The notes beneath the pieces are model-generated. The model ran no database searches. It was not told the origin of the DNA and saw only the letters and a list, made by a program, of their open reading frames with translations. DNA of 39,588 nucleotides from an uncultured bacterium (GTDB taxonomy: Bacteria > Cyanobacteriota > Vampirovibrionia > Gastranaerophilales > Gastranaerophilaceae), in the NCBI GenBank assembly GCA_902801985.1, contig CADCKD010000014.1, forward strand, positions 5,883 through 45,470, read 5' to 3'. A program made the translations under genes and the position numbers. This document shows positions 13,544 to 14,591 of the stretch, one piece after another (within the stretch, counting starts at the first letter, position 1; the number at the start of each line of letters is the position of its first letter).

Positions 13544-13924
13544 CTATTTTTCGTTAACCCATAAACCGTGTATATTGCAATATTCAAAAGCTTTGAAGTG
13601 TTCGTCTTCTTCATAGATATTTGAAACGGGTTCTTCTGTCGGGTGCAGAAAAGTTGTTATAATTCTCATTTTATCATCTGTTACCGTTTGTATAAAATCT
13701 ATATGATGCTCTACTGTTGCAGGATGAAGTTCTGAACCTATCTGAATTTTATTATCCTGTGTAAAATACGGAACATGTTTTTCCATTTTTTCTTCATCTT
13801 TAGAATGTGGTTCTAGTAATGCCATTGGCTTGTTACAGCATACAAGTTCCCCAAATCCTTCGTTCATAACCTGTACAATATTACCGCAAACTTCACATTT
13901 GTATAACTCAAGATGCTTTGTCAT
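13544..13924 (-). CDS. dfx: Desulfoferrodoxin (superoxide reductase)
   Basis: This non-haem iron enzyme reduces superoxide to hydrogen peroxide, typical of anaerobes. The 126-residue protein has the desulforedoxin-like FeCys4 centre I (C10, C13, C29, C30 in CEVC and VCC). The catalytic centre II ligands are H50 (EKHVPYF), H67 (ELHPAT), H73 (EHHIDF), C116 and H119 (YCNIHGLW). The lysine of the EKHVP motif is K49. A good Shine-Dalgarno (AAGGAG) precedes the ATG. It lies convergent with the mtaB-like gene, one base between stops, and near ferritin, which together handle oxidative stress and iron. Confidence 0.96.
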   Translation of the reverse strand: MTKHLELYKCEVCGNIVQVMNEGFGELVCCNKPMALLEPHSKDEEKMEKHVPYFTQDNKIQIGSELHPATVEHHIDFIQTVTDDKMRIITTFLHPTEEPVSNIYEEDEHFKAFEYCNIHGLWVNEK

Positions 13925-13959
13925 AGAAAACTCCTTCTTATAAAACTAAAATATTTCAA

Positions 13960-14034
13960 CAGTCGCAACGGCGGTGATATACTGCTCGCTGCCTGCTCGT
14001 CTCACTGCCGTGAGCCGACACTGCAGACTTCGCA
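13960..14034. repeat. Structured element, copy 1
   Basis: The copy starts with the 21-base core CAGTCGCAACGGCGGTGATAT (13960-13980; identical in copy 2). A nested hairpin follows: TGC/GCA (13983-13985 with 14032-14034), CTGC/GCAG (13989-13992 with 14023-14026), TCG/CGA (13997-13999 with 14016-14018) and CTCAC/GTGAG (14001-14005 with 14010-14014) around a 4-base loop. A T/C mismatch separates the last two helices, as in copy 2. Confidence 0.75.
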
Positions 14035-14047
14035 CTAAAAGAATTTT

Positions 14048-14076
14048 CCGCCTGTGCAATCAAAGATTGCTCCGCT
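14048..14076. repeat. Spacer hairpin between the two structured copies
   Basis: GCAATC-AAA-GATTGC forms a perfect 6-base-pair hairpin (around 14056-14070), flanked by CCGC-type GC-rich bases. It separates copy 1 and copy 2. Confidence 0.5.
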
Positions 14077-14092
14077 CCTTTTGCTTTCGCTT

Positions 14093-14169
14093 CAGTCGCA
14101 ACGGCGGTGATATTATGCTACGCAACCTGCTTGTCTTACTATTCAGTAAGCCAACCTGTTGCTTCGCAT
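14093..14169. repeat. Structured element, copy 2
   Basis: The same 21-base core lies at 14093-14113, 133 bases after copy 1. The hairpin has ATGC/GCAT (14115-14118 with 14166-14169), GCAAC/GTTGC (14122-14126 with 14158-14162), TTG/CAA (14131-14133 with 14152-14154) and CTTAC/GTAAG (14135-14139 with 14146-14150). Relative to copy 1, four base pairs are changed on both sides so that pairing is kept. This points to selection on the folded form, not on a protein. Confidence 0.75.
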
Positions 14170-14201
14170 CGGCTGACGCAGAATTAATGCCGTGCCACTG
14201 T

Positions 14202-14369
14202 CTATCGAAATATATGAACACAATATCCTTTAATACTTTCTACCTCAATGATTATAACACCCGTAAAGCTTTTCTTAGTGCTGCTGAGTTTCCCCCCTGA
14301 CACGGTTCGAAATTTTACGCCGCCATAACCATTGCTATCAACGATTATATTAAATTCCAATGTCTCCAT
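14202..14369 (-). CDS. 55-residue small protein with structured leader
   Basis: No family is recognised. The frame starts at ATG 14369 behind a TGAGGA Shine-Dalgarno and ends with TAG at 14204..14202. The peptide begins METLEFNIIVDSNGYGG. It has a basic, Ser/Lys-rich middle (KLSSTKKSF), a hydrophobic GVIIIEV strand and ends HIFR. The alternating hydrophobic pattern suggests a small beta-rich, soluble protein. A TATAAT (14455..14450) would give a leader of about 75 bases containing two hairpins. Base composition is richer in G+C than neighbouring genes. The two structured elements lie immediately downstream on this strand. Confidence 0.55.
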   Translation of the reverse strand: METLEFNIIVDSNGYGGVKFRTVSGGKLSSTKKSFTGVIIIEVESIKGYCVHIFR

Positions 14370-14386
14370 AGAGTCCTCACAACAGG

Positions 14387-14442
14387 CTCTGCACCCCGCA
14401 TACGCTTCGGGTCAAGAGTTTGCAACACCCCGTGGAGCACGG
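14387..14442 (-). promoter_or_regulatory. Structured leader of the 55-residue gene
   Basis: Read on the minus strand, CCGTG-CTC-CACGG (14442..14430) is followed by a longer hairpin closed by CTCT/AGAG (14418..14387) with an inner CCCG/CGGG helix. The GC-rich leader sits between a TATAAT box (14455..14450) and the Shine-Dalgarno. It could be a regulatory or riboswitch-like leader, but no known class is recognised. Confidence 0.45.
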
Positions 14443-14496
14443 CAATCTTATTATAACATAATCTTTTTTATTCGCTACTCTCCTGTCGGGGATTTG

Positions 14497-14511
14497 TTAT
14501 AATTTTTAAAA
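14497..14511. promoter_or_regulatory. PerR/Fur-like box over the ferritin -10 region
   Basis: TTATAAT-T-TTTAAAA matches 12 of 14 positions of the PerR consensus TTATAATNATTATAA and overlaps a TATAAT (14498-14503) about 88 bases before the ferritin start. PerR or Fur control of ferritin is common. The AT-rich background makes a chance match quite possible. Confidence 0.3.
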
Positions 14512-14591
14512 TTGTTCTTTCCGTATACTCCAAAAAGAGAATGTTATTTTGTCTAACTTTCTTTATATTTACCCCTGAAAGGAGATTTTAT

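What the first reader, a model, noticed from the sequence alone, without database searches (positions are those of the whole stretch)
13960..14169. Two diverged copies of a folded element with compensatory base changes
Two copies, 133 bases apart, begin with the same 21-base core and then fold into the same nested hairpin. Between copies, four base pairs differ on both strands while pairing is kept: C-G to T-A in the innermost helix, C-G to T-A in the next, and T-A to A-T plus G-C to A-T in the third. A T/C mismatch is kept in both. The region is richer in G+C than the neighbouring genes. This covariation suggests selection on RNA or single-stranded DNA structure, for example a non-coding RNA family, a mobile palindromic element or a binding site for a structure-specific protein. 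I do not recognise it as a known class.
Basis: seen in the sequence. Interest (0 to 1): 0.75.

Follow-up and report, generated by a model that had tools for sequence, protein, structure and literature searches.

The report
Structured repeat family capping gene ends
The two hairpins belong to a previously unlisted family of about 130-base repeats, scattered over one family of bacteria, that fold into a conserved two-part shape and sit, in one fixed orientation, right behind the stop codons or terminators of genes such as those for ribosomal proteins.

Summary
In detail: two copies, a shared 21-base core, four compensated base pairs. It is the edge of something larger. Read on the minus strand, the repeat is a ~132-nt two-domain unit: long nested hairpin A, then domain B, closed by CCGCC/GGCGG. 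The window holds A-B-A between the SRP RNA gene and a desulfoferrodoxin-like gene. A covariance model finds it in 79 of 146 genomes of the order; in a phylum-wide sample every hit fell in one family. Over 107 distinct copies 90.7% of pair cells hold, 34 of 38 pairs change on both sides, and 14 are significant in a tree-aware test. Rfam has no match. It behaves as a dispersed, variably present, tandem-forming chromosomal repeat. Of 103 sites, 57 lie at a sense-strand gene's stop codon, mostly 0-3 nt behind it, and 11 behind a T-run; many hosts are ribosomal-protein genes. No terminal inverted repeats, no target-site duplication, no linked RAYT transposase, no phage or plasmid copies found. Best reading: a new REP/ERIC-like repeat family acting, if at all, as a structured 3' RNA segment beside stop codons; how it spreads is unknown. 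No transcript data were available.

The parts
14048..14179 (-). complete repeat unit (copy 2), domains A and B
   Evidence: covariance model R1, 136.7 bits, E 4e-33
14108..14179 (-). domain A of copy 2: nested hairpin ending in CATAATATCA
   Evidence: model positions 1-72 in the printed alignment; pair counts
14048..14107 (-). domain B: closing helix CCGCC/GGCGG, a variable hairpin and the GCAATC-TTT-GATTGC hairpin
   Evidence: model positions 73-132; pair counts
13960..14036 (-). partial unit (copy 1): diverged domain A plus the first ~15 bases of domain B
   Evidence: direct repeat; model 31.5 bits
13960..13980 (.). 21-base core, first copy
14093..14113 (.). 21-base core, second copy; recombination between the cores explains the single-copy relative G005
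14186..14444 (-). host RNA gene: SRP RNA, apparently of the large type, directly upstream of the repeat on its strand (ends approximate)
   Evidence: RF00169 at 14241-14336; 14190-14461 conserved over the genus; ends pair in the fold
13544..13924 (-). downstream neighbour: desulfoferrodoxin-like gene
   Evidence: ORF; NCBIfam TIGR00320 2e-33 but below its cut-off, FeS4 domain above cut-off

Best explanation
The region is a small array (A-B-A) of a lineage-specific family of dispersed, structured intergenic repeats. Shown: a ~132-nt unit with two covarying domains; copy number differs between species, and the same site is occupied in some and empty in others; copies sit in sense orientation directly at gene 3' ends or behind T-runs; an array lost or gained a unit between the direct core repeats. 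Inferred: the repeat is transcribed with its host gene and works as a folded 3' segment, as reported for REP and ERIC RNA, by changing ribosome release or mRNA stability next to the stop codon; it was spread by an unidentified activity acting in trans, and selection kept copies lying just behind stop codons and terminators in the transcribed orientation.
For: Covariation: 64 double-change cells against 20 shuffled and at most 11 slid on 13 units; 633 against 169 and at most 96 on 107 rows; 14 of 38 pairs E<0.05 in a tree-aware simulation with only 2 outside pairs, both in neighbouring columns of one helix. Spread. Placement: 57 of 103 at a sense stop codon against 8% of random points, 11 behind a T-run; 19 chosen host genes all sense and within 6 nt. 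Hosts confirmed by Pfam. Occupied and empty orthologous sites. Precedents: REP within 15 nt of stop codons (PMC12306157); orientation-dependent ERIC effect on mRNA (PMC2229807).
Against: No transcript or expression data. No mobilising enzyme found; no target duplication or inverted repeats. The G-U against A-C test for the RNA sense strand is only weak (43 against 29). 19 of 103 sites have no assigned context. The alignment was fitted to the model. A function at the RNA level is by analogy only.
Confidence: 0.6

Rival explanations
1. Purely selfish non-autonomous DNA repeat: the fold is needed as single-stranded DNA for transposition, and gene-end placement only reflects where insertions do no harm.
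For: Patchy presence and variable copy number; decayed remnants; other repeats occupy the same spot behind rplF.
Against: Harmless-site filtering does not by itself explain a one-sided orientation or the 0-3 nt spacing where spacers of 30-120 nt exist. No transposase linked.
Confidence: 0.25
2. A regulatory or processing RNA element belonging to ribosomal-protein operons, vertically inherited and lost in many species.
For: Same gene ends occupied across genera (rplC, rpsK, fba); many hosts are ribosomal-protein genes.
Against: Hosts are many unrelated genes and RNAs; empty sites are common and copy number varies from 0 to over 20; tandem arrays; other repeats in the same place.
Confidence: 0.1
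3. Chance local duplication with coincidental pairing.
For: The two cores are direct repeats, and a relative has exactly one copy.
Against: Dozens of genomes carry covarying copies.
Confidence: 0.01

Closest known systems
REP / BIME sequences (GTAG and CGTC super-families)
   Same: Dispersed chromosomal palindromic repeats, often downstream of coding regions and probably transcribed; some E. coli copies lie within 15 nt of a stop codon; CGTC types lack a known transposase (PMC3733652, PMC12306157).
   Different: REPs are 20-40 bp; this unit is ~132 nt with two domains. The RAYT genes of these bacteria carry another, short palindrome and not this unit. Gene-end placement is far more frequent here (57 of 103) than the 11% given for E. 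coli REP.
ERIC (127-bp enterobacterial repeat)
   Same: Similar size, folded, intergenic, transcribed between genes of operons, orientation matters (PMC2229807).
   Different: ERIC has terminal inverted repeats and a target duplication; neither was found here. No sequence relation was tested.
Rickettsia palindromic elements (RPE)
   Same: 105-146 bp folded repeats, found also in RNA genes such as tmRNA (PMC2229807).
   Different: RPEs insert in frame inside proteins; here copies lie behind stop codons or supply the stop codon.
MIRU and BOX elements (from memory, not tested)
   Same: Modular or tandem repeats in spacers of operons; MIRU are described at stop/start codons.
   Different: Different lineages, no sequence relation tested; this repeat sits directly behind stop codons and also behind terminators and RNA genes.

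Membership tests
REP (RAYT-associated, GTAG type) | linked to or flanking a RAYT / Y1 transposase | tested here: not met
   No PF01797 in own genome; found in 46 of 146 genomes, but the 8 RAYT-type loci examined hold no unit
REP (RAYT-associated, GTAG type) | short 20-40 bp palindrome with unpaired GTAG tag | tested here: not met
   Unit of ~132 nt; a G-N-A-G motif precedes the hairpin, but its last G is paired
MITE / ERIC-like | terminal inverted repeats | tested here: not met
   End-to-end score 5.1 against 4.9 shuffled
MITE / ERIC-like | target-site duplication | tested here: not met
   Flank identity at shuffled level for lengths 2-9 over 102 copies; empty sites show none clearly
Any Rfam family | match to a curated model | tested here: not met
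   Only SRP RNA and two chance hits in 13925-14540, even at E up to 5
Dispersed structured intergenic repeat (general kind) | multiple chromosomal copies at unrelated sites, variably present between relatives | tested here: met
Dispersed structured intergenic repeat (general kind) | conserved fold shown by compensatory change | tested here: met
Dispersed structured intergenic repeat (general kind) | transcribed with neighbouring genes | not testable with these tools
   Position in operon spacers implies it; no RNA data

The most novel reading that the evidence does not exclude
The repeat spreads by an RNA- or transcription-coupled route: its placement exactly at transcript and reading-frame ends, in sense orientation, at strongly used genes, without inverted repeats or target duplication, reflects the insertion mechanism itself (for example joining to 3' ends of abundant transcripts followed by copying into the chromosome) rather than later selection.
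Probability: 0.1. Interest if true: 0.85.

Novelty: new variant of a known kind. Interest (0 to 1): 0.55.

Why it matters
It gives a clean natural experiment: the same structured segment is present or absent behind the same ribosomal-protein genes in related species, so its effect on translation termination, operon stoichiometry and mRNA stability can be measured. It also adds a repeat family whose placement is unusually precise, with no known mobiliser, and for which my searches of Rfam and of the paper library found no description.

Tried and rejected
RAYT as mobiliser: absent in own genome and not linked elsewhere. MITE reading: no inverted repeats or duplication. Phage or plasmid origin: no match in viral contigs by pattern, nor in phages and plasmids by blastn. 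Rfam family: none. Exact insertion boundaries from joined-flank queries: empty sites were found, but the flanks are too AT-rich and diverged to show a duplication; one locus before tmRNA (L056) has a ~30-base flanking duplicate, a single case. Strand choice from G-U against A-C: only a weak lean. Naming the organism was not possible with the tools; a Gastranaerophilales-like gut bacterium is only a guess from memory. Literature searches on that group and on such repeats found nothing relevant.

Full report
What was checked. The 21-base core occurs at 13960 and 14093 and nowhere else in the window. Folding energy alone is unremarkable.

What it is. Searching the own genome with the core and with the whole region found diverged relatives on other contigs, and the genus gave many more. 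Domain B is closed by a nearly invariant CCGCC/GGCGG helix. Its inner hairpin is in most copies a short stem with an internal loop, but in some a full stem (CTATCAC-GAA-GTGATAG in the own genome; CTACGG..CCGTAG in L029). Units follow head to tail with a spacing of about 134 bases. In the window the minus strand reads SRP RNA, A (copy 2), B, A (copy 1), desulfoferrodoxin-like gene.

Structure evidence. On 13 hand-picked units the 38-pair structure keeps 92.4% of cells with 64 double-change cells, against 20 in shuffles and at most 11 when partners are slid. A covariance model collected 114 matches; on 107 distinct rows 34 of 38 pairs change on both sides somewhere, and the covariation score is 0.420 against 0.142 shuffled and at most 0.085 slid. 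Because related sequences inflate such counts, I simulated columns independently along a FastTree phylogeny with matched numbers of changes: 14 of 38 pairs reach E<0.05, and only two pairs outside the structure do, both between neighbouring columns of helix 6. Caveats: the alignment was fitted to the model, the null is home-made with 30 replicates, and R-scape was not available.

Distribution. The own genome has eight matches below E 1e-4 at six loci. In a phylum-wide draw all 42 positive genomes belong to the window's family; one genome of another family of the order was positive. No copy was found in viral contigs, phages or plasmids.

Placement. For 103 distinct sites with enough flank, 57 start at the stop codon of a sense-strand reading frame (random points in the same loci: 8%), most often 0, 2 or 3 bases behind it. 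A few of these frames are spurious (three are the SRP locus). Eleven start behind a run of T, in several cases clearly that of a hairpin terminator; 16 follow another unit; 19 are unassigned. In some cases the repeat supplies the stop codon: rplK ends GAG|GCG TAA and rpsI ends AGA TA|G. Pfam confirmed as hosts L6, L3, S11, L2, S13, L23, L18, S9, S8, L11, GroEL, RNA polymerase alpha, SSB and class-II aldolase. Other copies lie behind the 3' end of 23S rRNA (L120) or beside tmRNA and SRP RNA. For 19 host genes chosen as gene-end cases all copies are sense and within 6 nt; uniform insertion in the spacers would give this with log10 P about -20, or about -9 if only 20 nt were tolerated. That test is conditional on having chosen gene-end cases.

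Dynamics. At the SRP locus the repeat is present in the own genome, G005, G016, G004 and G002 and absent from the other genus members inspected, where the SRP RNA is followed by a T-run. The near relative G005 has a single domain A whose left part is copy 2 and whose right flank is that of copy 1, the product expected from recombination between the two cores. Behind rplF, occupied and empty spacers alternate, and some hold a different repeat at the same spot; behind rplC remnants are seen, and a deletion remnant was seen at another site (L234).

How it works. Shown: a dispersed, covarying, sense-oriented repeat at gene ends. Inferred: it is part of the transcript and acts on ribosome release or mRNA 3' ends. 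The precedents are E. coli REP, where copies within 15 nt of a stop codon are reported to stall ribosomes (PMC12306157), and ERIC, whose effect on mRNA stability depends on orientation (PMC2229807). The spreading enzyme is unknown; CGTC-type REPs are likewise reported without a transposase (PMC3733652).

Membership. It is not a RAYT-linked REP, and not a MITE by the tests done. It is best filed as a new family of the general kind 'dispersed structured intergenic repeat', a new variant because of its two-domain unit and exact gene-end placement. The preference for translation genes rests on six loci in the own genome, and elsewhere the sample favoured high-scoring copies, so it is suggestive rather than measured.

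Noticed in passing
window 14186-14444 (-): The SRP RNA looks like the large type with paired 5' and 3' ends, though Rfam matched only the small core. In the own genome and G005 the T-run that follows it in other species is replaced by CATTAATTCT before the repeat.
   Followed up: partly
L203-L232, spacer behind rplC: A conserved segment (CTGCCATATAAA...GGGGTA and variants with paired changes) precedes the gene that follows rplC in all genomes read; possibly an autoregulatory leader of that gene.
   Followed up: no
L106, L107 behind rpsK: A similar conserved GCGGGGGCTTG...TAGTCCA...AAACCA.AGATGCCCCGC element follows, possibly a leader of the next gene.
   Followed up: no
L179, L183, L193, L194, L196, L197 behind rplF: A second repeat family (GATAATCGTT...GAGTATCTTATCC and relatives) sits at the same position, directly behind the rplF stop codon, including in the own genome.
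   Followed up: no
L138, L140, L141, L142: RAYT-type transposase genes of these bacteria have a short REP-like palindrome nearby (GTTGGGCATACTTGCCCAAC), unrelated to the unit studied.
   Followed up: partly
L056 around 1366-1630 (own genome contig C6): The array next to tmRNA is flanked by a ~30-base direct duplicate that includes the start of tmRNA.
   Followed up: no
L007, L010, L083: An alternative second domain (GTCGC...AGGAGC...CCACAGGAGCT, read on the repeat's strand) replaces domain B in some copies, so the family is modular.
   Followed up: no
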